Shown: piece by piece, positions 10,031 through 25,655 of the stretch
Layout of the letters: the number at the start of each line of letters is the position of its first letter
How positions within the stretch are numbered: the first letter of the stretch is position 1
Assembly: GCA_007131635.1 (NCBI GenBank)
Contig: SLQE01000294.1
Location: forward strand, 1 to 35,610
Reading direction: 5' to 3'
Length of the DNA stretch: 35,610 bases
DNA from: Bacteroidota bacterium
Lineage (GTDB): Bacteria > Bacteroidota > Ignavibacteria > T3Sed10-11
The notes under the pieces: model-generated
Told to the model about the DNA's origin: nothing
Database searches by the model: none
Seen by the model: the letters and a program-made list of their open reading frames with translations, nothing else
Made by a program: the position numbers and the translations under genes

Positions 10031-10063
10031 TAAAAAGAAAGGTCTCACAGCGGGAGACCTTTC
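10031..10063 (-). terminator. Intrinsic terminator between tsf and pyrH
   Basis: 10 bp perfect stem GAAAGGTCTC (10037-10046) / GAGACCTTTC (10054-10063) with a 7 nt loop. It is followed on the minus strand by TTTTTA. Confidence 0.8.
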
Positions 10064-10071
10064 CGGTTGAA

Positions 10072-12628: not shown

Positions 12629-13900
12629 TTACAGCAAAGTCACGATCGGATTTTCGAGCATACGTTTAAAATCACGGAGGAATTCCGCACCGACTGCCCC
12701 ATCGACGACCCTGTGGTCGCAGGACATTGTAACGCGCATAGTTTTACCGACTACCACGATACCGTTCCTGACAACCGGTTTTTCCACGATCGCGCCGGTA
12801 GCGAGTATGGCACCCTCTGGCGGATTAATAATAGCCGAAAATTCTTCTATATCAAACATGCCAAGATTACTTATAGTAATACTGCCGCCTTCGTATTCTT
12901 CCGGCTTTAGTTTTTTATTTCTCGCTCGTTCCGCGTAGTCTTTTGCTTCTTTTGATATCTGAATAATTCCCTTTCTGTCGCAACTGCGGATCACCGGCGT
13001 GATTAGTCCGTCTTCGAGTGCAACGGCCAGTCCGATATGTATCTGTCCTCGCCGTTTAATACTGTCTCCTGCCCAGTATGAATTAACTTTCGGATGTTTG
13101 AGCAAGGCATGTGCGGTCAGCTTGATCATTATGTCAGTAAAGCTGACTTTCGCTTCCTTCTGCATTTCGTTCACGCGACTACGCATTTCGACGATGTTTG
13201 TCATATCGACTTCGACGGTCAGATAGAAATGCGGGACGGACGTTTTGCTTTCAACCATCCTGCGGGCAATAGCTTTACGCATACCGGTAAGCTCGATGGT
13301 TTCAGCGACCGGCTCATCAATCGCGTATGATGGTGCCTCTTCTTTCCCGACACCCTTCTCGAGAGCTGCCTCAATATCTCTTTTTATAATTCTGCCTTCC
13401 GGTCCGGTTCCGCTGAGAGCTTTCAGATCGACTCCATGATCATCCGCCATTTTGCGGGCAAGCGGTGAGGCTTTGACTCTGCCGTCCCTGCCCGGAGCCG
13501 GTTTTTCTTCAGACTCTTTTATCTCCGGTGTATCCTGTTTTCTCTCGGTAGTATCTGCTTTTTCTTTATCTTCTTTTTGTTCTTTTTCTTCTTTTTCCGG
13601 TTTATCAGGTTTTTTATCTTTCTTACTGTCGTCCTCCCCGGAAAGATCGTCGACTTTCTCACCTTCTTCACCTATGACAGCTATCACCGCACCGACTGCA
13701 GCTCCCTTCCCTTCCGGCACAACAATTTTCAACAATGTACCGCTATCAAAGGCTTCAAGTTCCATGTCAGCTTTATCGCTTTCAACTTCAGCGATCACCT
13801 CACCCTGTTCTACCTGTTCTCCTTCTTTTTTCAGCCACTTCAGGATCTTTCCCTCTTCCATTGTGTCGCTGAGTTTCGGCATTTGTACTTTTATTGCCAT
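12629..13900 (-). CDS. pdhC: Dihydrolipoamide acyltransferase E2 (pyruvate dehydrogenase type)
   Basis: 423 aa. Lipoyl domain AEVESDKADMELEAF, charged K/E/D linker, peripheral-subunit-binding domain VKASPLARKMADDHGVDLKALSGTGPEGRIIKRDI, catalytic DHRVVDG. Confidence 0.93.
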   Translation of the reverse strand: MAIKVQMPKLSDTMEEGKILKWLKKEGEQVEQGEVIAEVESDKADMELEAFDSGTLLKIVVPEGKGAAVGAVIAVIGEEGEKVDDLSGEDDSKKDKKPDKPEKEEKEQKEDKEKADTTERKQDTPEIKESEEKPAPGRDGRVKASPLARKMADDHGVDLKALSGTGPEGRIIKRDIEAALEKGVGKEEAPSYAIDEPVAETIELTGMRKAIARRMVESKTSVPHFYLTVEVDMTNIVEMRSRVNEMQKEAKVSFTDIMIKLTAHALLKHPKVNSYWAGDSIKRRGQIHIGLAVALEDGLITPVIRSCDRKGIIQISKEAKDYAERARNKKLKPEEYEGGSITISNLGMFDIEEFSAIINPPEGAILATGAIVEKPVVRNGIVVVGKTMRVTMSCDHRVVDGAVGAEFLRDFKRMLENPIVTLL

Positions 13901-13908
13901 TCGTTACC

Positions 13909-14892
13909 TCATTCTTCTATATAGAGTACTTTTTTAATTGCTTTTTTAACACGCTCGACGTTCGGGAGCGATGCTTTTTCTAAATTTGCGGCATACGGCA
14001 TTGGTACATCCGCCTGGTTGACCCGTTCTATCGGTGCATCAAGATAATCGAATGCTTTTTGATGAACCCGTGTTATTATTTCGGAGCTGACGCTTGCAAA
14101 AGGCCACCCCTCTTCAACGACTACGAGTCTGTTTGTCTTCTTTACCGATTCGATTATTTTTGAATCGTCGAGCGGCCGGATCGTTCTGGGATCAATGATC
14201 TCCACATCTATGTCTTCTTCCTTTAATTCATCTGCGGCCTTTTGAACGATATAATACATTTTCGACCAGGTAACCACAGTGACGTCTTTTCCTTCCCGTT
14301 TGACATCGCTCACGCCGATGGGGATGGTATATTCCTCTTCAGGCACTTCACCTTTCTGTCCGTACATTACTTCGCTCTCGAGAAAGATCACCGGGTTATC
14401 GTCCCGGATTGCCGATTTCAGCAAACCTTTTGCATCGGCGGGTGTAGAGGGTGCAATGACATATAAACCCGGAACATGTGAATAAAAAGATTCAAATGAC
14501 TGCGAGTGGGTAGCGGCAAGTCCGTGTGCTGCACCGTTCGGACCGCGGATAACCATCGGTACCTTGAACTGTCCGCCTGACATATATCGCATCTTCGCGG
14601 CATTATTAAATATCTGATCCATTGCGAGAATCGAGAAATTAAATGTCATCATTTCAACAATCGGTCGTAATCCAACCATTGCAGCACCGATACCGATTCC
14701 GGTAAAACTGGCTTCTACGATCGGTGTATCGATAACCCGTTTCTCGCCGAATCGCTGCAGTAAACCTGCCGTAACTTTATATGCTCCCTGGTAGACACCA
14801 ACCTCCTCACCCATTATAAAAACATTTTCGTCGCGTTCCATCTCTTCAGCCATCGCCTGATTTAAGGCTTCACGCCATGTAATAATTGCCAT
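13909..14892 (-). CDS. pdhB: Pyruvate dehydrogenase E1 beta subunit
   Basis: 327 aa. REALNQAMAEEMERDENVFIMGEEVGVYQGAYKVT...RVIDTPIVEASFTGIGIGAAMVGLRPIVE; no N-terminal lipoyl domain. Confidence 0.95.
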   Translation of the reverse strand: MAIITWREALNQAMAEEMERDENVFIMGEEVGVYQGAYKVTAGLLQRFGEKRVIDTPIVEASFTGIGIGAAMVGLRPIVEMMTFNFSILAMDQIFNNAAKMRYMSGGQFKVPMVIRGPNGAAHGLAATHSQSFESFYSHVPGLYVIAPSTPADAKGLLKSAIRDDNPVIFLESEVMYGQKGEVPEEEYTIPIGVSDVKREGKDVTVVTWSKMYYIVQKAADELKEEDIDVEIIDPRTIRPLDDSKIIESVKKTNRLVVVEEGWPFASVSSEIITRVHQKAFDYLDAPIERVNQADVPMPYAANLEKASLPNVERVKKAIKKVLYIEE

Positions 14893-14929
14893 TCTTTTGT
14901 TGTCTCCTTACTAAACTATCGGTTCAATA

Positions 14930-16003
14930 TTATTCTACAATAACGTCTGTATATAAATCTTCGAGCGGCGGCTCTTCGCTCTTCTCGGCAAACTCGATGG
15001 ACTCGTTGACAATCTTTTTGATCTCATCGTCCATTTCTTTCATTTGCTCTTCGCTGAAGATATTTTCTTTTTTGAGAAGTTCACCGAAGTTGATGATTGG
15101 ATCCTTCGCTTTCATCTCTTCAACCTCTTCTTTGGTCCGGTAATGACCGTGAATCGGATCGGACATCGAGTGACCGCGGAATCGATACGTTCGTGCTTCA
15201 AGAAATGTCGGGATATGTTCATAACGCGCCCGGTCAACCGCTTCTTTTGTTTTTCTGTACATATCGAGAACATCCATGCCGTCAACAACATCGCGGGGCA
15301 TATTGTATGCCGACGCCCGTTCATATATATCCCACACGGCAAACGCACGTTCAAATGCGGTTCCCATACCGTACCGGTTGTTTTCACAGATGTACACTAC
15401 CGGAAGTTTCCAGAGTGCAGCCATATTCAGAGTTTCATGAAAGACACCCTGATTCGCGGCCGCTTCACCAAAGAAACAAACGGTCACATCCTGCTCGGCT
15501 TTATATTTCGAACCGAATGCAAATCCGGCGGCAAGCGGAATATGACCGCCCACGATTGCGTGGCCGCCCATCATCCGTTTTTCGGCATCGAAGAGGTGCA
15601 TCGAACCTCCTTTACCACGCGAGCAGCCCGTGACTTTACCAAACAACTCGGCCATCACTTCGTTCGCGGTGATCCCTTTCACCAGTGCATGACCGTGATC
15701 GCGGTATGCGGTAAGCATATAATCCGTTTCATGCATCGCGGCATTCGCACCGACGGCAACCGCTTCCTGGCCGTTATAAAGATGGCAGAATCCCATGATC
15801 TTTTCCATTCCGTACATTTGCGCGGCTTTTTCTTCAAAGCGCCTGATAAGAAGCATCTGGCGGTATATCTGAATTAACTTTTCTTCCGACAAGTCAAGCC
15901 CTTCTAACGGTGCCTTCTGATTGGTGAGCGTCTTCTTGATTGCTTTATCAAATGTTTTATTTGCTTTACTCTGTTTCTTTTTTGGTGCAGCAGATTTTGC
16001 CAT
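14930..16003 (-). CDS. pdhA: Pyruvate dehydrogenase E1 alpha subunit with a basic N-terminal extension
   Basis: 357 aa. RFEEKAAQMYGMEKIMGFCHLYNGQEAVAVG...CSRGKGGSMHLFDAEKRMMGGHAIVGG...YRFRGHSMSDP. Confidence 0.94.
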   Translation of the reverse strand: MAKSAAPKKKQSKANKTFDKAIKKTLTNQKAPLEGLDLSEEKLIQIYRQMLLIRRFEEKAAQMYGMEKIMGFCHLYNGQEAVAVGANAAMHETDYMLTAYRDHGHALVKGITANEVMAELFGKVTGCSRGKGGSMHLFDAEKRMMGGHAIVGGHIPLAAGFAFGSKYKAEQDVTVCFFGEAAANQGVFHETLNMAALWKLPVVYICENNRYGMGTAFERAFAVWDIYERASAYNMPRDVVDGMDVLDMYRKTKEAVDRARYEHIPTFLEARTYRFRGHSMSDPIHGHYRTKEEVEEMKAKDPIINFGELLKKENIFSEEQMKEMDDEIKKIVNESIEFAEKSEEPPLEDLYTDVIVE

Positions 16004-16050
16004 TCGGTTCTCCTGTCTATAAGTAATTGTCTTTCTATAAAAAAATATTA

Positions 16051-16932
16051 TTAAACGTGTTTCTCCGCATGATAGGAACTGCGTACTAGCGGACCTGATT
16101 CTACATGTCTGAAACCCATCGTGTGTCCCTCCTGACGGTACATCGCGAACTCGTCGGGATGAACGAATCTCTCGATGGGGAGATGATTTTTCGTCGGCTG
16201 AAGATACTGCCCGATAGTCAGGATGTCACATTCGACTTCCCGGAGATCATGCATAACCTGCAACACTTCATCCGGCTCCTCACCGATGCCAACCATCATC
16301 CCGCTCTTTGTTAAAAAACCGCGCTTCTTTGCACGATGCAACAATTCAAGCGACTGCGGGTATTTTGCCTGGGGTCGGACAATACGGTAAATACGAGGAA
16401 CAGTTTCTACATTATGATTAAGTACATCGGGTCTCGCATCGAGGACAATATTCAATGCATTTTCCGATCCTTTAAAATCGGGTATCAGCACTTCGATCTT
16501 GCAGTCGGGGATATCTTTCCGTATTAATCTGATACATTCGGCGAATATCGGTGCGCCGCCGTCCTTCCGTTCATCACGGTTCACCGATGTGATAACCGTA
16601 TGCCGTAGACCCATTTTCTTTACAGCATCCGCTACACGCCGCGGTTCATCCCAATCAAGCGCTCCGGGTCGTCCGGTTTTCACCGCGCAGAACCCGCAAC
16701 TTCGCGTACACGTATCGCCGAGAATCATAAATGTGGCCGTACCCGCACTCCAGCACTCTCCCATATTCGGACAACGGGCCTCCTCACACACCGTATGCAG
16801 GCGCTGCTGTCCGATGAGGTCTTTTATTGTCTTATATTGTTCCCCGCCCGGTACACGGACTTTGAGCCATTCCGGCCGCCGCCGCTTGGGTTCGGTTTCG
16901 TGGAGGGGAGATTCCTGTATTATGTAAGCCAT
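16051..16932 (-). CDS. lipA: Lipoyl synthase
   Basis: 293 aa. [38 protein letters not shown] contains both Fe-S cysteine clusters. Confidence 0.97.
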
Positions 16933-16998
16933 ATTGTATCTTTCTCTGCTAACTCAAATCTGTTTAATTGTTGTTAATGGTATAATGGATTAGGAATC

Positions 16999-17218
16999 GG
17001 TTATCGGTTATTGGTTATTTGTTAATGGTCGGTTATTCAACCATTAACAAGTAACCGATTACTACTCATTGGTAAAACGTTCTCTAAAAGCCAATTGGTG
17101 CGAACCATTAACCATTAACTAATAACCAATAACTGCTTAATAACCGATAACTACTTCGTTCTCTGCAAGCAAATGGCTGCGAACCATTAATTAACCATGA
17201 ATAAATAACCGATAACTG
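16999..17218. repeat. MITE-like/degenerate repeat island with terminal inverted repeats
   Basis: GTTATCGGTTATT (17000-17012) and its perfect complement AATAACCGATAAC at 17139-17151 and 17204-17216. A ~60 bp imperfect direct repeat starts CGTTCTCT at 17078 and 17157. Inner hairpin 17011-17028/17041-17058. Confidence 0.8.
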
Positions 17219-17219
17219 T

Positions 17220-18491
17220 TTAAATACTTTGCTTATCGTCAAAGTTTTCCAGATTCCGTACAACTGTCTGGAGGAACATACCGCCAAGCGCACCGTCGAT
17301 AAGGCGGTGATCGTACGACATACTGATATAGACCATCGGTTTAATGGCTATCATATCGTCGATGACAACCGGTCGTTTTTTAATTACACCGACACCGAGA
17401 ATTGCTAGCTGCGGCTGGCTGATGATCGGGGTTCCCCACAGGTTGCCGAATATACCCGGGTTGGTAATCGTAAACGTACCTCCCTGCACTTCGTCGGGGA
17501 CGAGCTTTTTATTACGTGCCCTGACCGCAAGGTCCTGTACCGCACGGGCCAAACCGGTTAGATTTTTCTCATCTGCATGTTTGATTACCGGAACGATTAA
17601 TCCGTTTTCCAACGCTACCGCCACACCAATATTAATGAATTTTTTCATTAATATCTTATCACCGTCGATCGATGCATTCATGAGCGGATATTTTTTTAAG
17701 GCCTTCACAACCGCATCTACCATGAATGGTGTGTACGTCAGCTTAAACCCTTCCCGTTTCTCGAAAGCATTTTTATGCTTCTCGCGGAAAGTAAAAATAC
17801 GGGACATATCTGCTTCCGTAACAGAACTGACATGCGGCGATGTCTTCACACTTTGTACCATATGCTCGGCAATCTTCTTCCGCATGGCGTCCATCTGCAC
17901 AACCTCTACGCCGCCGCGCGACACTTCAACATGCGGTGCAGCGAAAGCTTCAACCGGTTTTTCTTCTGTCTTTCCGGCTTTCTTATCCTCGATATATTTG
18001 AGAATATCTTTTTTCGTTACCCTTCCGCCGGCACCCGTACCCGGGACATTCTCCAGCTCGCCCATACTAACGCTTTCTTTTCGGGCAATATTCAATACCA
18101 GTGGTGAAAAAAACCTGTCTTTTGGTTTCTCCTGCTCCGGGGATGATTTTTCCGTGACCGGGGCCGGTTCCGTTTTTTCCTCGGACGGTTGTGGCTCTGC
18201 CGATTCCGCGGTTGCATCTTTTTCCGGCTCCTTGACCGCCTCGCCGTCGCCTTCGGATTCGATATGTGCTATAACCGTGTGGACTTCAACAGTTTCGTTC
18301 TCATTCACCAGTATTTTCTTTAAAATACCTTTCGATGGTGACGGAATTTCCGAATCAACCTTATCGGTGCTGATCTCCAGCAGCGTTTCATCTTTTTTCA
18401 CCGGATCACCGACTTTTTTATGCCATTTTACGATCGTTCCTTCGGCAATGCTCTCACCCATTTGGGGCATAATAACTTCAATGGTAGCCAT
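17220..18491 (-). CDS. Dihydrolipoamide acyltransferase E2, second paralogue (branched-chain/2-oxoglutarate-like)
   Basis: 423 aa. PQMGESIAEGTIVKWHKKVGDPVKKDETLLEISTDKVDSEIPSP lipoyl domain, PSBD, catalytic DHRLIDG. Confidence 0.93.
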   Translation of the reverse strand: MATIEVIMPQMGESIAEGTIVKWHKKVGDPVKKDETLLEISTDKVDSEIPSPSKGILKKILVNENETVEVHTVIAHIESEGDGEAVKEPEKDATAESAEPQPSEEKTEPAPVTEKSSPEQEKPKDRFFSPLVLNIARKESVSMGELENVPGTGAGGRVTKKDILKYIEDKKAGKTEEKPVEAFAAPHVEVSRGGVEVVQMDAMRKKIAEHMVQSVKTSPHVSSVTEADMSRIFTFREKHKNAFEKREGFKLTYTPFMVDAVVKALKKYPLMNASIDGDKILMKKFINIGVAVALENGLIVPVIKHADEKNLTGLARAVQDLAVRARNKKLVPDEVQGGTFTITNPGIFGNLWGTPIISQPQLAILGVGVIKKRPVVIDDMIAIKPMVYISMSYDHRLIDGALGGMFLQTVVRNLENFDDKQSI

Positions 18492-18526
18492 ATTTTTGAT
18501 TTTTCATTTATTATTGATTATTTCTT

Positions 18527-18554
18527 ATTATATCAGATGAAAATAATTCATCAA
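18527..18554 (-). promoter_or_regulatory. Candidate internal promoter upstream of the second E2
   Basis: Minus strand TTGATG (18549-18554), 16 nt spacer, TATAAT (18527-18532). The spacer contains GATGAA-AATAA-TTCATC. Confidence 0.45.
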
Positions 18555-18573
18555 AAAAATATAATTACTGTTC

Positions 18574-19551
18574 TTAATATTCCAACAATTCCTTCAGATT
18601 TTTTAGGACCTTATCCTTACCCGGTAAAAATTCTGTTTCGAGGGTTGGTGCATAGGGTACGGGCGTATCGCACGCTCCCAGCCGCCGAACGGGTGCATCG
18701 AGGTATTCAAATGCGTTTTCGTTAATGAACGCCGCGATCTCACCGCCGATCCCACCTGTTAGTGTATCCTCATGTAAAATCAGCACTTTATTTGTTCTTT
18801 TCACGCTTTGCAGTATGGCTTCCTTATCGAACGGCATCAACGATCTGAGATCCAGTACTTCAACATCGTATTCATCGCTGCCGGCAATATCCTGTGCTGC
18901 ATCCAGTGCAACGTGTACCGTTGGCCCGTAGGTGATGATTGTTGCATCATTCCCCTTGCGTTTCACATCGGCTTTCCCTATCGGTACCACATAATCTTCG
19001 GACGGCACCTCGCCTTTGATTCGCCGATATAAATATTTGTATTCAAAAAACAGCACCGGATCGGGATCCCGGATAGCAGCTTTCAGCAATCCTTTTGCGT
19101 CGTACGGTGTTGACGGCGCAACGAGTTTCAAACCGGGCTGATGGAAAAACCACGCTTCAGGATTTCGTGAATGGAAGGGTCCTCCGTGAATATTTCCCCC
19201 TGAAGGCAATCGTACGACCATCGGTACCGGGAGACCCCATCTGTAATGGATCGATGCGGTATTGTTCACCAATTGATTAAAACCGCAGGTGACAAAATCC
19301 GCAAATTGCATTTCCGCGACGGGACGCATACCGACGATTGCGGCACCCGTTGCCGCACCTATGATTGCCGCTTCCGCCAAAACCGTGTCGATGACACGCT
19401 CTTCACCGAATTTTTCAAGAAATCCTTTTGTAACTTTAAACGCACCGCCGTACACACCGATATCCTCGCCGAGCAGGAACACTTCTTTGTCACGCTCCAT
19501 TTCTTCCCACAGTGCCGCGGAAATAGCTTCTATGTATGGTTGTACCGGCAT
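18574..19551 (-). CDS. 2-oxoacid dehydrogenase E1 beta subunit
   Basis: 325 aa. EEMERDKEVFLLGEDIGVYGGAFKVTKGF...ERVIDTVLAEAAIIGAATGAAIVGMRPVAEMQFADF. Confidence 0.93.
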   Translation of the reverse strand: MPVQPYIEAISAALWEEMERDKEVFLLGEDIGVYGGAFKVTKGFLEKFGEERVIDTVLAEAAIIGAATGAAIVGMRPVAEMQFADFVTCGFNQLVNNTASIHYRWGLPVPMVVRLPSGGNIHGGPFHSRNPEAWFFHQPGLKLVAPSTPYDAKGLLKAAIRDPDPVLFFEYKYLYRRIKGEVPSEDYVVPIGKADVKRKGNDATIITYGPTVHVALDAAQDIAGSDEYDVEVLDLRSLMPFDKEAILQSVKRTNKVLILHEDTLTGGIGGEIAAFINENAFEYLDAPVRRLGACDTPVPYAPTLETEFLPGKDKVLKNLKELLEY

Positions 19552-19553
19552 AA

Positions 19554-20579
19554 TTATTTTTTTGCGAAGACTCCATCTGTTACTTCGGATCCGTGGGGAT
19601 ACGGTTCTTTTACCGCATCTTCGGCCGATGTTGTCAGTGTGTGATTGATTTCCTCAAACATTTTTGTGTTTTCATCTTCATCCAGAATTCCCCAGTCAAA
19701 CAACTTTCTCTCGAACTGTCGGATCGGATCGCGTTTATTCCATATCTCGTACATTTCTTTCGGGACGTATGAGGCGTCATCGTGAGCCGAGTGACCGTGC
19801 ATCCTCATTGTAACTGATTCGATAAGGGACGGACCATCACCGGCACGCGCACGATCCACGGCTTTCCTTGTTTCGGCATAAACTTGCAATATATCGGTTC
19901 CGTCAACCGTGACGCCCGGTATCCCATATCCGATGGCACGATCGGATAAATTCTCACAGGCGTACTGCTTATGTAAAGGAGTCGAATAAGCAAATTGATT
20001 ATTCTCTATTATCAGTATCAACGGTAATTTCATCACCGATGCCATTGCAAGCGCTTCGTGAAAATCACCCACATTACAACCGCCGTCACCGATGTAGTTC
20101 AATACAACGGAATCCTCTTTTCTGTTCTTCAAGGCAAGTGCCACACCGTTCGCCAGCGGGATCATTGCGGCGAGGTGACTGATATTTCCGTAGATTCTGA
20201 GTTCGGTATCTGCATAGTGCCCGGTACCGTCGCGTCCCCGCGTAAAACCGCTGCCGCGTGCAAGGTGTTGCAGATAGAGCTGATACGGTGTCTGCCCCTT
20301 AACGAAATGCGCACCTATATCACGATGCATGGGGAAGAGATAATCGGTTTTTCCCAGTGCATAACTACTACCGACCGATGTCGCTTCGTTGCCGTTCCCC
20401 GTGTACGCTCCTCCGATAATTTTGCCCTGGCGATACAACTTTAATATCGAATTTTCAAACTCTCTGGTAAGAACCATATAATAATACAACCGGATAGCGT
20501 CCTCACGCAAAAGGTTAAGACGGGATAGTTCCTGCGACAGCGAGTTTGTTTTTTTCGTTTGTATTTCCTCTACCTTCAT
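19554..20579 (-). CDS. 2-oxoacid dehydrogenase E1 alpha subunit
   Basis: 341 aa. YTGNGNEATSVGSSYALGKTDYLFPMHRDIGAHF...NYIGDGGCNVGDFHEALAMASVMKLPLILIIENN. It is separated from E1 beta by 2 nt. Confidence 0.93.
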   Translation of the reverse strand: MKVEEIQTKKTNSLSQELSRLNLLREDAIRLYYYMVLTREFENSILKLYRQGKIIGGAYTGNGNEATSVGSSYALGKTDYLFPMHRDIGAHFVKGQTPYQLYLQHLARGSGFTRGRDGTGHYADTELRIYGNISHLAAMIPLANGVALALKNRKEDSVVLNYIGDGGCNVGDFHEALAMASVMKLPLILIIENNQFAYSTPLHKQYACENLSDRAIGYGIPGVTVDGTDILQVYAETRKAVDRARAGDGPSLIESVTMRMHGHSAHDDASYVPKEMYEIWNKRDPIRQFERKLFDWGILDEDENTKMFEEINHTLTTSAEDAVKEPYPHGSEVTDGVFAKK

Positions 20580-20608
20580 AAACTTTTTTCAGGATTAATG
20601 AACTGCGG

Positions 20609-22696
20609 TTAAAAATCTGCCAGGTCGCGAAGTGCGTTCAATATATCGGTTTCGTTCGGCAGCATATCCTGTTCGAGCGGCGGTGAATACGGGACCGGTG
20701 AATCTTTTGCTCCGACGCGCCTGACCGGACCGTCGAGGTTTTGGAAACAGGCATCCGAAATAAGGGCTGCAATTTCGCCGCCGAAGCCGCCGAATACAGT
20801 ATCTTCGTGAACGATAAGCACTTTGCCTGTTTTACGAACCGAATTATAGATTGTTTCTTCATCGAGCGGATTCAATGTGCGGAGGTCGATGACTTCGACA
20901 CTCACGTCATCAAGTTTCGATGCCGCGGAGAGCGTCCGATGGACCATCATACCATACGTCACAACCGTTATATCATCACCTTCCTGCTTTACGGCAGCCA
21001 TCCCGAAAGGAAGAAGATAATCTTTACCGGGTGCCGGAGCAGCGGCAAATCCCTGTCTGTACATACCCTTATGTTCGAGAAATATAACAGGATCGTTCTC
21101 ACGACAGGAAGTTTTCAATAGTCCTTTTGCATCGGCCGCGTTCGATGGAAAAACGACACGTAATCCGGGGATATGTGTAAAAAATGATTCGATAGACTGA
21201 CTATGATAGAGTCCGCCCCGTATATAACCGCCGACGGCTACCCGGATGACCATCGGACAGGAAAAATTACCGTTCGAGCGATACCGAAGCATTGAGACTT
21301 CATCGCGGATCTGCATAAAAGCAGGCCAGATATAATCACCGAACTGTATTTCGACAACCGGTTTAAAACCGCGTACCGAGAGTCCGAATGCCGTACCTAC
21401 AATACTCGCCTCGGCAAGCGGTGAATTAAAGACCCGGTCCCATCCGAATTTGTCGGTAAGCCCTTTTGTCGCGGTAAACACGCCCCCCTTTTTACCCGCG
21501 ACGTCTTCACCGTATACAATCATCTTCGGATTATGTTCCAATTCCTCGGCGAGCGCATGGTTAATTGCATCGACAAGAACCACCGGTTTCCCTCCGCTCG
21601 CATCCGGTTTTTCATACCCTTCTTTTTTAACCATAAATTCAGGAGCATAAACATTAAGCTGTGAGGTATGCGCTTCCGGTAACGGCCGGCTTTCTGCCCA
21701 GTCTGCCGCGCTGTCGACGAGAGTTTTTGCTTCTTCACGAATTTTTTCCATCTGTTTCTCGTCGAGGATCCCCTCTTTGAGGAGAAATTTTTCCATTTTT
21801 AATATCGGATCACGTTTTTTATCTGCTTCGATTTCCGCGGGATCACGATATTTTTTATGGTCGTCGGACGATGAATGCGGAAGCAAACGAACCACGTCGG
21901 CGTGAATGAGGCTGGGGCCCTCACCCTTCCGGGCTTTTCCGACCGCTTCTCTGGCAATTTGATAGGACTCGAAAAAATCTGTTCCATCAACTAAATATCT
22001 GTTGAGTCCCTTGTACCCCTTCACCATTTCATATACCGACTCACCGGCGGTCTGTTCGCGTCGGGTTACGGAGATGGCATATTTATTATCCTGAATAAGA
22101 AAGATAACCGGTAGTAATTCCCGGCTCGCCCAGTTAATTGCTTCGTGGAATTCTCCCTCACTTGTTGTTCCCTCACCGGATGAGACATACACAACCTCGT
22201 CGGTCCCGTCTTTTACTGCACCGAGAGCGGTACCTACCGCCTGCAGGTATTGCGTACCGGTCGGACTGGATTGCGCAACAATCCGGAGGTCTTTATCGCC
22301 ATAATGTCCGGGCATCTGTCTGCCACCGGAACTTTTCCCTTCCACCCTGTGCATTGTCTCGAGAAGAATATCTTTCGGTGTCGATCCGTATTGGAGTGCG
22401 AATGCGAGATCACGATAATATGGATATGCCCAGTCATACCCCGGTTTCATAGCACGCGCTACAGCGATTTGCGCCGCCTCGTGCCCGGATCCGCCGATAT
22501 GAAAAAAAGCCTTTCCTTGACGCAAGAGGATCATGGACTTATCATCCATATAGCGTGATGTAAGCATCGTCTTGTAAATCTCGATTACCTTCGGGCCATC
22601 GAGTTCGAGACCCTTCAAAGATTTCAGTGTTTGTTCTCCGTCTTTATTTTTTATATCCGATTCTTGCACAACAAGTTTATTTTTCTGAGCGGCCAA
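20609..22696 (-). CDS. Fused 2-oxoacid dehydrogenase E1 alpha/beta
   Basis: The alpha half (SGHEAAQIAVARAMKPGYDWAYPYYRDLAF) and beta half (LVDAINHALAEELEHNPKMIVYGEDVAGKKGGVFTATKGL) are in one frame. The ORF track starts at 22762; a TTG at 22696 preceded by GGGAGG is preferred because it avoids overlapping lipB. Confidence 0.93.
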   Translation of the reverse strand: MAAQKNKLVVQESDIKNKDGEQTLKSLKGLELDGPKVIEIYKTMLTSRYMDDKSMILLRQGKAFFHIGGSGHEAAQIAVARAMKPGYDWAYPYYRDLAFALQYGSTPKDILLETMHRVEGKSSGGRQMPGHYGDKDLRIVAQSSPTGTQYLQAVGTALGAVKDGTDEVVYVSSGEGTTSEGEFHEAINWASRELLPVIFLIQDNKYAISVTRREQTAGESVYEMVKGYKGLNRYLVDGTDFFESYQIAREAVGKARKGEGPSLIHADVVRLLPHSSSDDHKKYRDPAEIEADKKRDPILKMEKFLLKEGILDEKQMEKIREEAKTLVDSAADWAESRPLPEAHTSQLNVYAPEFMVKKEGYEKPDASGGKPVVLVDAINHALAEELEHNPKMIVYGEDVAGKKGGVFTATKGLTDKFGWDRVFNSPLAEASIVGTAFGLSVRGFKPVVEIQFGDYIWPAFMQIRDEVSMLRYRSNGNFSCPMVIRVAVGGYIRGGLYHSQSIESFFTHIPGLRVVFPSNAADAKGLLKTSCRENDPVIFLEHKGMYRQGFAAAPAPGKDYLLPFGMAAVKQEGDDITVVTYGMMVHRTLSAASKLDDVSVEVIDLRTLNPLDEETIYNSVRKTGKVLIVHEDTVFGGFGGEIAALISDACFQNLDGPVRRVGAKDSPVPYSPPLEQDMLPNETDILNALRDLADF

Positions 22697-22727
22697 AACA
22701 ACCTCCCGATTACTAGTATCTGATATG

Positions 22728-23465
22728 TTAAACCGTTTGTCCGACCGAATGCGGAACAGCAAGCGATTCGATTTCCGCAGCCTCTGTTGGCAGTAATGTC
22801 ACATTAAAAACCGACTCAAATTCTCTGACAAGGACCGGTATCACACGATCCAAAGATATATCCTCTTTAAGCACTTCGGTCATCGATGTAACACCCTTAT
22901 GAAAAATCCCGCAGGGAATTATCCTTTCGAAATAGGATAAATCCGGATGTATGTTAAAAGCAAAACCGTGCATTGTAACCCATCGACTGACCTTAATACC
23001 CAATGCGGCGATCTTTTCCTCGCCGATCCAGACTCCCGTCTCACCCCCGGACCTCTTACCGGATATGTCAAAATAGTTGAGCGTCCGGATAATAACTTCT
23101 TCCAGCTGCCGTAAGTACCAATGAATATCTTTTTTAAATCTTTCGAGATTGAGGATAGGATATCCGACAATTTGTCCGGGTCCATGGTATGTAATATCAC
23201 CGCCCCGGTCTATCGGATAGAACTCCGCTCCCGAGTTTTTCAACTCTTGCGCATCGGCGAGCAAATGATTTGGATCACCGCTTTTACCGAGCGTGTAAAC
23301 ATGGTCATGCTCATTTATAAGAAATATATCAGGCGAACGATTGTCGGCAATCAAAGTATGCAGAGATTTCTGCAGATCCCACATCGGTGCATACCGGGTT
23401 CTTCCCATATTGCAATAACGTACGGTATTTCTGGCAGCTTGCACTAGTTTATCGTTCCCGATCAT
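22728..23465 (-). CDS. lipB: Octanoyl-[acyl carrier protein]:protein octanoyltransferase
   Basis: 245 aa. IDRGGDITYHGPGQIVGYPIL...GGETGVWIGEEKIAALGIKVSRWVTMHGFAFNI. The start overlaps the lpdA stop (TGATG). Confidence 0.96.
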   Translation of the reverse strand: MIGNDKLVQAARNTVRYCNMGRTRYAPMWDLQKSLHTLIADNRSPDIFLINEHDHVYTLGKSGDPNHLLADAQELKNSGAEFYPIDRGGDITYHGPGQIVGYPILNLERFKKDIHWYLRQLEEVIIRTLNYFDISGKRSGGETGVWIGEEKIAALGIKVSRWVTMHGFAFNIHPDLSYFERIIPCGIFHKGVTSMTEVLKEDISLDRVIPVLVREFESVFNVTLLPTEAAEIESLAVPHSVGQTV

Positions 23466-24880
23466 CAGATATGTATCGCTTCCCCGTATGCGTCGCCGGC
23501 CGCCTCCATGATCGCTTCGGCGAACGTCGGGTGAGCGTGTACCGTTCGAATAATTTCTTCTTTTGTTGCCTCGAGTGTTTTTGCCATACCGAGTTCGGCA
23601 ATGATCTCGGTTGCTTCATTTCCCACGATGTGTGCTCCGAGCAACTCACCGTATTTAGCATCGAAAATTAGTTTAACGAGACCATCGGTCTCTCCTGCTG
23701 CGATCGCTTTCCCGTGAACCCGGAAGGGGTATCGACCGATTTTAATTTCGTGGCCCTGTTCTTTAGCTTTCTCCTCGGTTAATCCGATCGATGCTACCTG
23801 CGGCTGGCAATACGTACAGCCGGGAATATTCTCATAGTTAATTGGATGCGTCTCGACACCGGCAATCGCCTCGACACAAACTATTCCTTCGTGTGAGGCC
23901 ACGTGCGCGAGCCACGGAGCACCGATGACATCACCAATGGCATACACTCCTTCGACATTGGTCCGGTAATATTCATCCACCTTGATGTGGGCTTTCTCGG
24001 TTTTCACTCCCAGCTTTTCGAGACCGATATTTTCGATATTTCCCCGGACGCCGATCGCTACTAAGGCGATGTCTGCGGCAATATCTTTTTTCCCGCCATC
24101 CTTATCCGAAACGCTCACCTTCACCTGTTTGCCGGAAGTATCGACTTTTTCGACTTTTGTACCGGTGTGAATTTCTATTCCGGACTTTTTAAATTTCTCC
24201 GTGACTACTTTTGTTATTTCTTTATCTTCGATCGGGAGAATAGACGGAAGCATTTCAATGATAGTAACCTTTGTGCCGAATGTGTTATAAAAATAGGCAA
24301 ATTCAACTCCTATGGCACCGGCACCGATTATAATCATTGATTTCGGTACTTTTTTGGGTACCATAGCTTCAAAATATGAAATAACCTTTTCACCGTCGAA
24401 TTCTACATCCGGTAATGAACGGGGTCTTGCACCGGTTGCAATAATTATATGTTTTGCACTGATCGTTTTTTCAGGTTTTTCATCGTCGGCTTTTTTATAC
24501 ACATCTACCTTACCCTTTGCGGGTATTTTGCCATATCCTGAAATATGTTCGATCTTATTTTTTTTGAAAAGGTATTCGACCCCTTTCGAGATCCGATCCG
24601 ATATCTTGCGGCTTCGTTGAACTACTTTTTCAAAATCGAATGAAACGTCTTTTACGTTTATACCAAACTCATCGGCATGACTGATCAGATTATAAAGTTC
24701 GGCATTTCGCAGAAGTGCTTTGGTCGGGATACATCCCCAATTAAGACAAATACCGCCCAATTTATCGCGTTCCACCAGACCGACTTTCAGACCCAGCTGA
24801 CTTGCCCGAATGGCTGCCACATACCCGCCCGGTCCGCCGCCGATAATAACTACGTCAAAACTTGTATTATTTTCTGCCAT
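23465..24880 (-). CDS. lpdA: Dihydrolipoyl dehydrogenase (E3)
   Basis: 471 aa. FAD motif VVIIGGGPGGYVAAIRASQLG, redox motif GGICLNWGCIPTKALL, C-terminal VHAHPTFAEAIMEAA. Confidence 0.97.
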   Translation of the reverse strand: MAENNTSFDVVIIGGGPGGYVAAIRASQLGLKVGLVERDKLGGICLNWGCIPTKALLRNAELYNLISHADEFGINVKDVSFDFEKVVQRSRKISDRISKGVEYLFKKNKIEHISGYGKIPAKGKVDVYKKADDEKPEKTISAKHIIIATGARPRSLPDVEFDGEKVISYFEAMVPKKVPKSMIIIGAGAIGVEFAYFYNTFGTKVTIIEMLPSILPIEDKEITKVVTEKFKKSGIEIHTGTKVEKVDTSGKQVKVSVSDKDGGKKDIAADIALVAIGVRGNIENIGLEKLGVKTEKAHIKVDEYYRTNVEGVYAIGDVIGAPWLAHVASHEGIVCVEAIAGVETHPINYENIPGCTYCQPQVASIGLTEEKAKEQGHEIKIGRYPFRVHGKAIAAGETDGLVKLIFDAKYGELLGAHIVGNEATEIIAELGMAKTLEATKEEIIRTVHAHPTFAEAIMEAAGDAYGEAIHI

Positions 24881-24910
24881 ACCTATCTATTCCTGTATTA
24901 ATGATATTTA

Positions 24911-24944
24911 GTAAACAAAAAAAGGGAAGATATTATTCCCTTTT
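24911..24944 (-). terminator. Terminator-like hairpin in the leader of lpdA (attenuator or sRNA 3' end)
   Basis: Minus strand AAAAGGGAA-TAATATC-TTCCCTTTTTTTG: 9 bp stem (24920-24928/24936-24944) followed by a T-tract, 40 nt before the lpdA ATG. Confidence 0.65.
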
Positions 24945-25043
24945 CCTTCATTTTAAATTTCAACACCCGCAGGTAGTTTCTGATCACATTTTTTTGTATC
25001 TTTTCCACTTGCCGATTAAGTAAGCAAAATTACACGAACGTAA

Positions 25044-25072
25044 AATATACATAAAAAGCAATAAACTGTCAA
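25044..25072 (-). promoter_or_regulatory. Near-consensus sigma70 promoter for the lpdA supercluster
   Basis: Minus strand TTGACA (25067-25072), 17 nt spacer, TATATT (25044-25049). Confidence 0.75.
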
Positions 25073-25181
25073 TAAACGTGTAAACGTGCAAACACCTAAA
25101 TAAAACGTGTAATGAACGCGGCCCGGTTTCATTTTATTGTTTTTTATACGCATTTTTTTTATTATTCACGAGAAATTTGCA

Positions 25182-25655
25182 ATGAATGCAGGTAACGGCA
25201 ATAGTAAGCAGCGTGTCGTGATTACGAACCGGAAAGCGCGTCACGAGTACCATATTGACGAGGTCTATGAGGCGGGGATATCACTCAGGGGAACCGAAGT
25301 AAAATCGCTCCGACTTGGCAACGCGAATTTGCAAGACAGCTATGCTTTCGTTCGTCAAGGCGAGGTTTTTCTCGAAGGTATGCATATCAGTCCGTACGAA
25401 TTCGGGAATCAATTCAATCATGAGCCGAAGCGTGAACGCAAATTACTTCTGCATAGAAAAGAAATACGCAAATTAATCGGGAAAACGAAAGAAAAGGGAT
25501 ATACCCTCATACCGCTCAGCGTTTATTTTAAAAGCGGAAAAGCAAAAATCGAACTCGCGCTTGCACGGGGAAAAAAAAGCTTTGACAAACGAAAAGCTAT
25601 CGCCGAGCGTGACGCAAAGCGTGATCAGGAACGGGAAATGAGAGTAAAATTCTAA
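25182..25655 (+). CDS. smpB: SsrA-binding protein
   Basis: NRKARHEYHIDEVYEAGISLRGTEVKSLRLGNANLQDSYA...RKEIRKLIGKTKEKGYTLIPLSVYF. The internal ATG at 25182 gives the usual ~158 aa; the track start at 25137 is probably too long. Confidence 0.96.
   Translation: MNAGNGNSKQRVVITNRKARHEYHIDEVYEAGISLRGTEVKSLRLGNANLQDSYAFVRQGEVFLEGMHISPYEFGNQFNHEPKRERKLLLHRKEIRKLIGKTKEKGYTLIPLSVYFKSGKAKIELALARGKKSFDKRKAIAERDAKRDQEREMRVKF

What the first reader, a model, noticed from the sequence alone, without database searches (positions are those of the whole stretch)
24881..25072. Consensus promoter plus ~155 nt leader ending in a terminator hairpin before lpdA: attenuator or small RNA
Minus strand TTGACA-N17-TATATT predicts a start near 25037. 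The transcript would contain a small ACC-UGCG-GGU hairpin (UNCG-type loop), then AAAAGGGAA-N7-TTCCCTTTTTTTG with a U-tract ending near 24912, only ~30-40 nt before the lpdA ATG. It may be a premature-termination switch for the supercluster or an independent ~125 nt sRNA. A 17-codon ORF (MKEKGIISSLFLFTKYH) overlaps the terminator.
Basis: partly seen in the sequence, partly recalled or inferred. Interest (0 to 1): 0.6.

Follow-up and report, generated by a model that had tools for sequence, protein, structure and literature searches.

The report
Early stop signal before lpdA genes
Between its promoter and the lpdA gene, which heads a large cluster of energy-metabolism genes, this bacterium carries an RNA stop-signal hairpin that is conserved over at least four related bacterial families, sits only at this gene in the genomes searched, and probably limits how much of the cluster is transcribed; what controls it is unknown.

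Summary
A near-consensus promoter (TTGACA-N17-TATATT, 25072-25044, minus strand), a ~157-nt leader and an intrinsic-terminator-like hairpin with U-tract (24947-24917) precede lpdA. Promoter and hairpin are kept in all four lpdA leaders found in the genus. In related families of the same class the same lpdA-lipB-E1-E2-lipA cluster carries a comparable hairpin 13-77 nt before lpdA and downstream of a promoter. Above the threshold: f1 4/4, f12 8/11, f17 9/14, f18 3/12, against 0.1, 1.5, 1.4 and 1.0 expected from shuffles. Stem sequences differ between families but pairing is kept. In f1 and f12 the hairpin pattern occurs once per genome in the genomes that have it, always at lpdA (12 of 12). All families with the hairpin fall in one clade of the LpdA tree; members that lack it mostly have very short leaders. 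Best reading: a conserved, cis-acting transcription attenuator of the 2-oxoacid-dehydrogenase/lipoylation cluster. Corrections: the UNCG hairpin and the 17-codon ORF are not conserved. No aptamer or antiterminator is detectable, and some leaders have only 24-38 nt before the hairpin, so a metabolite riboswitch is unlikely. A genus-specific 24-nt box (24959-24982) is conserved and unexplained. Termination itself is untested.

The parts
25044..25072 (-). Promoter TTGACA-N17-TATATT
   Evidence: hexamers identical in 4/4 genus leaders and TTGAYW-N17-TATATT in most hairpin-bearing relatives.
24881..25037 (-). lpdA leader, predicted start 25037
   Evidence: Start inferred from the -10 element; the first ~38 nt are poorly conserved (6/38 columns), 24999-24912 is conserved.
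24959..24982 (-). Genus-specific conserved box CAGAAACTACYTGCGGGYGTTGAA
   Evidence: 22/24 columns identical in 4 genomes; in 4 of 6 genus genomes, at lpdA only; no excess over the control in 391 class genomes.
24965..24987 (-). Possible small stem-loop (CAG/YUG with loop AAACUAC, plus GUC/GGY) over the box
   Evidence: RNAalifold and pair counts: 95.8% of cells paired, two pairs vary G-C/G-U, none on both sides; weak.
24965..24974 (-).
   Evidence: A-U pair broken in 3 of 4.
24917..24947 (-). Terminator-like hairpin (core 24920-24944) with U-run 24923-24917
   Evidence: pattern; fold; cross-family pairing.
24898..24951 (-). 17-codon ORF across the hairpin; not conserved as coding
23465..24880 (-). 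lpdA, dihydrolipoamide dehydrogenase
   Evidence: Pfam Pyr_redox_2 and Pyr_redox_dim.
12629..23465 (-). Downstream cluster: lipB, fused E1, E1 alpha, E1 beta, E2, lipA, E1 alpha, E1 beta, E2
   Evidence: Pfam for most of them; synteny over five families.
25137..25655 (+). smpB, divergent neighbour; so the hairpin is not the terminator of an upstream co-directional gene
   Evidence: Pfam SmpB; divergent in other f1, f3, f12 and f18 members.

Best explanation
The element is a cis-acting transcription attenuator of the lpdA-headed 2-oxoacid-dehydrogenase and lipoylation cluster. RNA polymerase starts near 25037, makes ~120 nt of leader, and at the GGGAA/UUCCC hairpin with its U-run a fraction of complexes terminate; the rest read through into lpdA, lipB and the following E1, E2 and lipA genes. 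The hairpin is modest (about -8.5 to -15 kcal/mol for the strong cases), so leaky termination is expected. Shown: promoter, hairpin, position, conservation, lpdA-specificity in f1 and f12, kept pairing. Inferred: that it terminates, that read-through varies, and by what. Because the RNA before the hairpin is short and unrelated between families, the control most likely acts on the hairpin or on the polymerase (an RNA-binding or Nus-type factor, or ribosome occupancy of the purine-rich 5' arm) rather than through a ligand aptamer. In this genus an extra 24-nt box may be a binding site that tunes read-through.
For: Genus: promoter, box and hairpin in 4/4 lpdA leaders, with variable loop and invariant arms. 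Class: leader hairpins in f1 4/4, f12 8/11, f17 9/14, f18 3/12 versus 0.1, 1.5, 1.4, 1.0 expected from dinucleotide shuffles; at a weaker threshold or by eye also G135, G145, G248, G176, G337. Hairpins lie 24-118 nt after a promoter and 13-77 nt before lpdA. Pairing kept through change: position -2 A-U/G-C, own arms 21/21 paired versus 0.68 across families; position +3 A-U/U-A, 18/22 versus 0.51. Genome-wide, AAGGGAA-N3-9-TTCCCTTTTTT occurs once in each f1 and f12 genome that has it, at lpdA in 12 of 12; the f17 version occurs at one place per genome, at lpdA, in 7 of 7 genomes with a match. In f1/G000 sequence 3/3 lpdA genes but 1/27 other divergent genes have such a hairpin. Hairpin families share one LpdA clade, six gains or losses at minimum, 0 of 500 shuffles as low. 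Most hairpin-less f12, f17 and f18 members have leaders of only 27-49 nt. Cluster synteny.
Against: No transcript data. The hairpin has only 3 G-C pairs in this genome; termination efficiency is unknown. No antiterminator (mean z 0.27) and no significant structure before the hairpin (mean z -0.32), so the regulatory input is not identified and it could be a constitutive leaky terminator. Several families with the same cluster (f3, f9, f22) lack it. f18 hairpins are weak (-4.6 to -8.9 kcal/mol). The 20-kb background regions were partly chosen knowing that lpdA had hairpins, so only their non-lpdA genes are an unbiased background.
Confidence: 0.72

Rival explanations
1. The promoter and terminator define a ~121-125-nt small RNA acting in trans, with the conserved box as its pairing seed, and lpdA is expressed by read-through (as with UpsM of Rhodobacter).
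For: Conserved 24-nt mostly unpaired box followed by a terminator in 4/4 genus members; such dual leader RNAs are documented (PMC5089854).
Against: Outside the genus only the hairpin is kept and the RNA before it is 24-115 nt of unrelated sequence; the box is genus-only; the hairpin is always tied to lpdA.
Confidence: 0.12
2. A metabolite riboswitch or leader-peptide attenuator senses lipoate, TPP, branched-chain amino acids or similar, and the terminator is its expression platform.
For: Position before a 2-oxoacid-dehydrogenase cluster; orphan candidates aceE and aceE-II exist before pdh operons in other bacteria (PMC11109978).
Against: No Rfam match; no antiterminator or pre-hairpin structure; some leaders have only 24-38 nt before the hairpin; the ORF is not conserved.
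Confidence: 0.06
3. The hairpin is not a terminator but an mRNA 5'-end stabiliser or translation element; its 3' arm can alternatively pair with the lpdA ribosome-binding site.
For: 3' arm (UUCCC or CCCUCUU) complementary to the lpdA SD region in many members, e.g. f17 z down to -2.5; mean z -0.54 over 29.
Against: A U-run follows the stem in nearly all members; the pairing signal is weak and absent in this genome (z +1.0).
Confidence: 0.07
4. Chance terminator-like hairpin with no function.
For: Terminator-like patterns are common in shuffles of the region.
Against: Cross-family recurrence, kept pairing and lpdA-specificity.
Confidence: 0.03

Closest known systems
Leader intrinsic-terminator attenuators (premature terminators surveyed by Naville and Gautheret 2010, PMC2965389)
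   Same: Promoter, leader, intrinsic-type terminator shortly before the first gene of an operon.
   Different: No antiterminator, leader peptide or aptamer found; the terms pyruvate dehydrogenase, lpd, pdh and Bacteroid- do not occur in that paper's main text.
aceE-II motif (and the earlier aceE motif), PMC11109978
   Same: Candidate regulatory RNA before a pyruvate dehydrogenase operon that includes lpdA.
   Different: aceE-II: Thioalkalivibrio only, upstream of aceE, with many conserved nucleotides; here a bare hairpin upstream of lpdA in Ignavibacteria-related bacteria.
UpsM leader sRNA of the Rhodobacter dcw cluster, PMC5089854
   Same: Rho-independent terminator in a leader that can yield a small RNA before a large conserved cluster.
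   Different: 268-nt leader, another operon; no evidence yet here of a stable or trans-acting RNA.

Membership tests
Intrinsic-terminator attenuator (general kind) | G+C stem followed by U-run located between promoter and first gene | tested here: met
   the stem has only 3 G-C pairs in this genome.
Intrinsic-terminator attenuator (general kind) | Conserved at orthologous genes with pairing kept through change | tested here: met
Intrinsic-terminator attenuator (general kind) | Transcripts end at the U-run and read-through is regulated | not testable with these tools
   Needs Term-seq or in vitro transcription.
Riboswitch | Conserved aptamer upstream of the expression platform | tested here: not met
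   No Rfam match; 24-115 nt of unrelated sequence before the hairpin outside the genus.
Riboswitch or classical attenuator | Antiterminator competing with the terminator | tested here: not met
   Complementarity of the 5' arm to the upstream leader is no better than shuffled, mean z 0.27.
Leader-peptide attenuator | Conserved short ORF with start, stop and regulatory codons | tested here: not met
   ATG only in this genome; ends differ; 32-nt insertion in one relative. Judged by reading the alignment.
   Outer pair broken in 3/4.
Trans-acting small RNA | Discrete stable RNA with trans targets | not testable with these tools
   Only the genus-conserved box is suggestive.

The most novel reading that the evidence does not exclude
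An aptamer-less attenuator in which the purine-rich, SD-like 5' arm is itself the sensor: ribosomes (or another purine-rich-RNA binder) on the arm block the terminator, while the freed 3' arm can mask the real lpdA ribosome-binding site, tying expression of the 2-oxoacid-dehydrogenase and lipoylation cluster to translation capacity.
Probability: 0.08. Interest if true: 0.65.

Novelty: new member of a known kind. Interest (0 to 1): 0.42.

Why it matters
Whether and how Ignavibacteria-related bacteria regulate pyruvate and branched-chain 2-oxoacid dehydrogenases was not covered by any paper the searches returned. A single-copy leader terminator kept at lpdA across families is a concrete, testable control point for this cluster, and it may belong to a class of leader terminators without an aptamer or leader peptide, whose signal would be something else.

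Tried and rejected
UNCG hairpin as a conserved element: rejected. 17-codon ORF or other short leader ORFs: no reading frame with a shared start and stop across the four genus members (read by eye). Dispersed repeat or multi-copy regulon: the box and hairpin are single-copy in the genome. Rfam families: none at gathering score; the low-threshold matches (DapZ, 23.8 bits versus cut-off 56, etc.) are chance-level. Antiterminator and SD-sequestration tests: no and weak. MAFFT could not align the hairpins across families because loop lengths differ, so pairing was counted on arms anchored at GGG/CCC. A first pair count failed on string length. Literature: no paper on an lpdA leader attenuator was found in the held library; one search failed.

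Full report
WHAT IS THERE. On the minus strand a near-consensus promoter (TTGACA-N17-TATATT, 25072-25044) predicts a start near 25037. The leader runs 157 nt to the lpdA ATG at 24880. A hairpin AAAAGGGAA-N7-TTCCCTTTT followed by a U-run (ending at 24917, then GUUU) lies 36 nt before the ATG. The 46-nt hairpin segment folds at -12 kcal/mol, z -2.4. smpB lies divergently upstream, so the hairpin is not the end of an upstream co-directional gene. lpdA is the first gene of a mostly tight run lpdA-lipB-fused E1-E1a-E1b-E2-lipA-E1a-E1b-E2; the largest gap, 287 nt, lies between E2 and lipA.

GENUS. Four of six genus genomes hold this lpdA in their assemblies, and all four keep the promoter, a 24-nt box (CAGAAACTACYTGCGGGYGTTGAA) and the hairpin. 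Identical columns: box 22/24, 5' arm region 12/12, 3' arm plus U-run 17/18, but only 2/5 in the loop and 6/38 next to the start. An alternative small stem over the box (CAG/YUG, GUC/GGY) pairs in 95.8% of cells with one-sided changes only; four sequences cannot decide it. The box is genus-only: among 391 class genomes the other matches are no more frequent than control matches. The 17-codon ORF has TTG starts and different ends in relatives and is not supported.

CLASS. The lpdA-lipB-E1-E2-lipA cluster is broadly syntenic over f1, f3, f12, f17 and f18. Scanning 120 nt upstream of 119 lpdA orthologues gave terminator-like hairpins in f1 4/4, f12 8/11, f17 9/14 and f18 3/12, against 0.1, 1.5, 1.4 and 1.0 expected from shuffles; other families are near expectation. 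Each lies downstream of a promoter-like site, mostly TTGAYW-N17-TATATT, and 13-77 nt before lpdA. Hairpin-less members of f12, f17 and f18 mostly have leaders of only 27-49 nt, as if promoter and gene had closed up when the element was lost.

STRUCTURE. Stems differ by family (AAAAGGGAA, GAAGGGAA, GAAAGAGGGAA, GGAAGAGGGC, GAAGGC and others) while pairing is kept. With arms anchored on GGG/CCC, position -2 switches A-U to G-C between families: own pairing 21/21, cross-family pairing 0.68; position +3 switches A-U to U-A: 18/22 versus 0.51. The cross-family comparison is a simple control and does not correct for phylogeny.

SPECIFICITY. AAGGGAA-N3-9-TTCCCTTTTTT occurs once in each f1 genome that has it (4) and in eight f12 genomes, always just before lpdA. 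The AAGAGGG version occurs at one place per genome in seven f17 genomes, again at lpdA. In own-genome and f1 sequence, 3/3 lpdA genes but 1/27 other divergent genes have such a hairpin. On an LpdA tree all hairpin families lie within one clade (SH-aLRT 90), needing at least six gains or losses; none of 500 label shuffles was as clustered. One ancestral gain with several losses is the simplest reading, but not shown.

MECHANISM. Transcripts that start at the promoter must pass the hairpin to reach lpdA, since too little room is left (13-77 nt) for another promoter in most members. Partial termination is the simplest consequence. The regulatory input is open: complementarity of the 5' arm to the upstream leader is no better than shuffled (mean z 0.27), the pre-hairpin RNA is not unusually structured (mean z -0.32), and pairing of the 3' arm with the lpdA ribosome-binding site is only weakly favoured (mean z -0.54). 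Several leaders have only 24-38 nt before the hairpin, which leaves no room for an aptamer. A factor acting on hairpin or polymerase, or an unregulated leaky terminator, fits best; in this genus the box is the obvious candidate binding site.

COMPARISON. No Rfam family matches. Candidate riboswitches before pyruvate dehydrogenase operons exist elsewhere (aceE, aceE-II) but differ in gene, taxon and structure. UpsM shows that a leader terminator before a conserved cluster can also make an sRNA. Literature searches found nothing on an lpdA attenuator; the library is open-access only.

VERDICT. Observation confirmed; attenuator supported by comparative evidence; sRNA possible but secondary; metabolite switch unlikely; termination and regulation remain to be shown by experiment.

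Noticed in passing
window 16940-17210 (minus strand): The gap between the E2 gene and lipA is filled with degenerate direct and inverted repeats (TTATCGGTTATT / AATAACCGATAA, TTAATGGTT / AACCATTAA).
   Followed up: no
window 10036-10064 (minus strand): Strong terminator-like hairpin GGAAAGGTCTCCCGCTGTGAGACCTTTC with T-run between tsf and pyrH; G003 has a similar hairpin (L191, near 146).
   Followed up: no
L004 (G005) lpdA leader: Two insertions with a shared motif (TTAATCAWT, then GAGCGAA) flank the hairpin in this genus member, one between the box and the hairpin, one after it; they look like small repeat elements.
   Followed up: no
window 20609-22762: Natural fusion of E1 alpha and E1 beta in one 717-aa protein, next to two separate E1 alpha/beta pairs in the same cluster.
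   Followed up: partly
L250 (G084) and L249 (G123), family f7: lpdA leaders contain a different inverted repeat near the gene (e.g. AAGGACAGTCC...GGACTGTCCTT) with a shorter T-run; possibly an independent leader hairpin.
   Followed up: no
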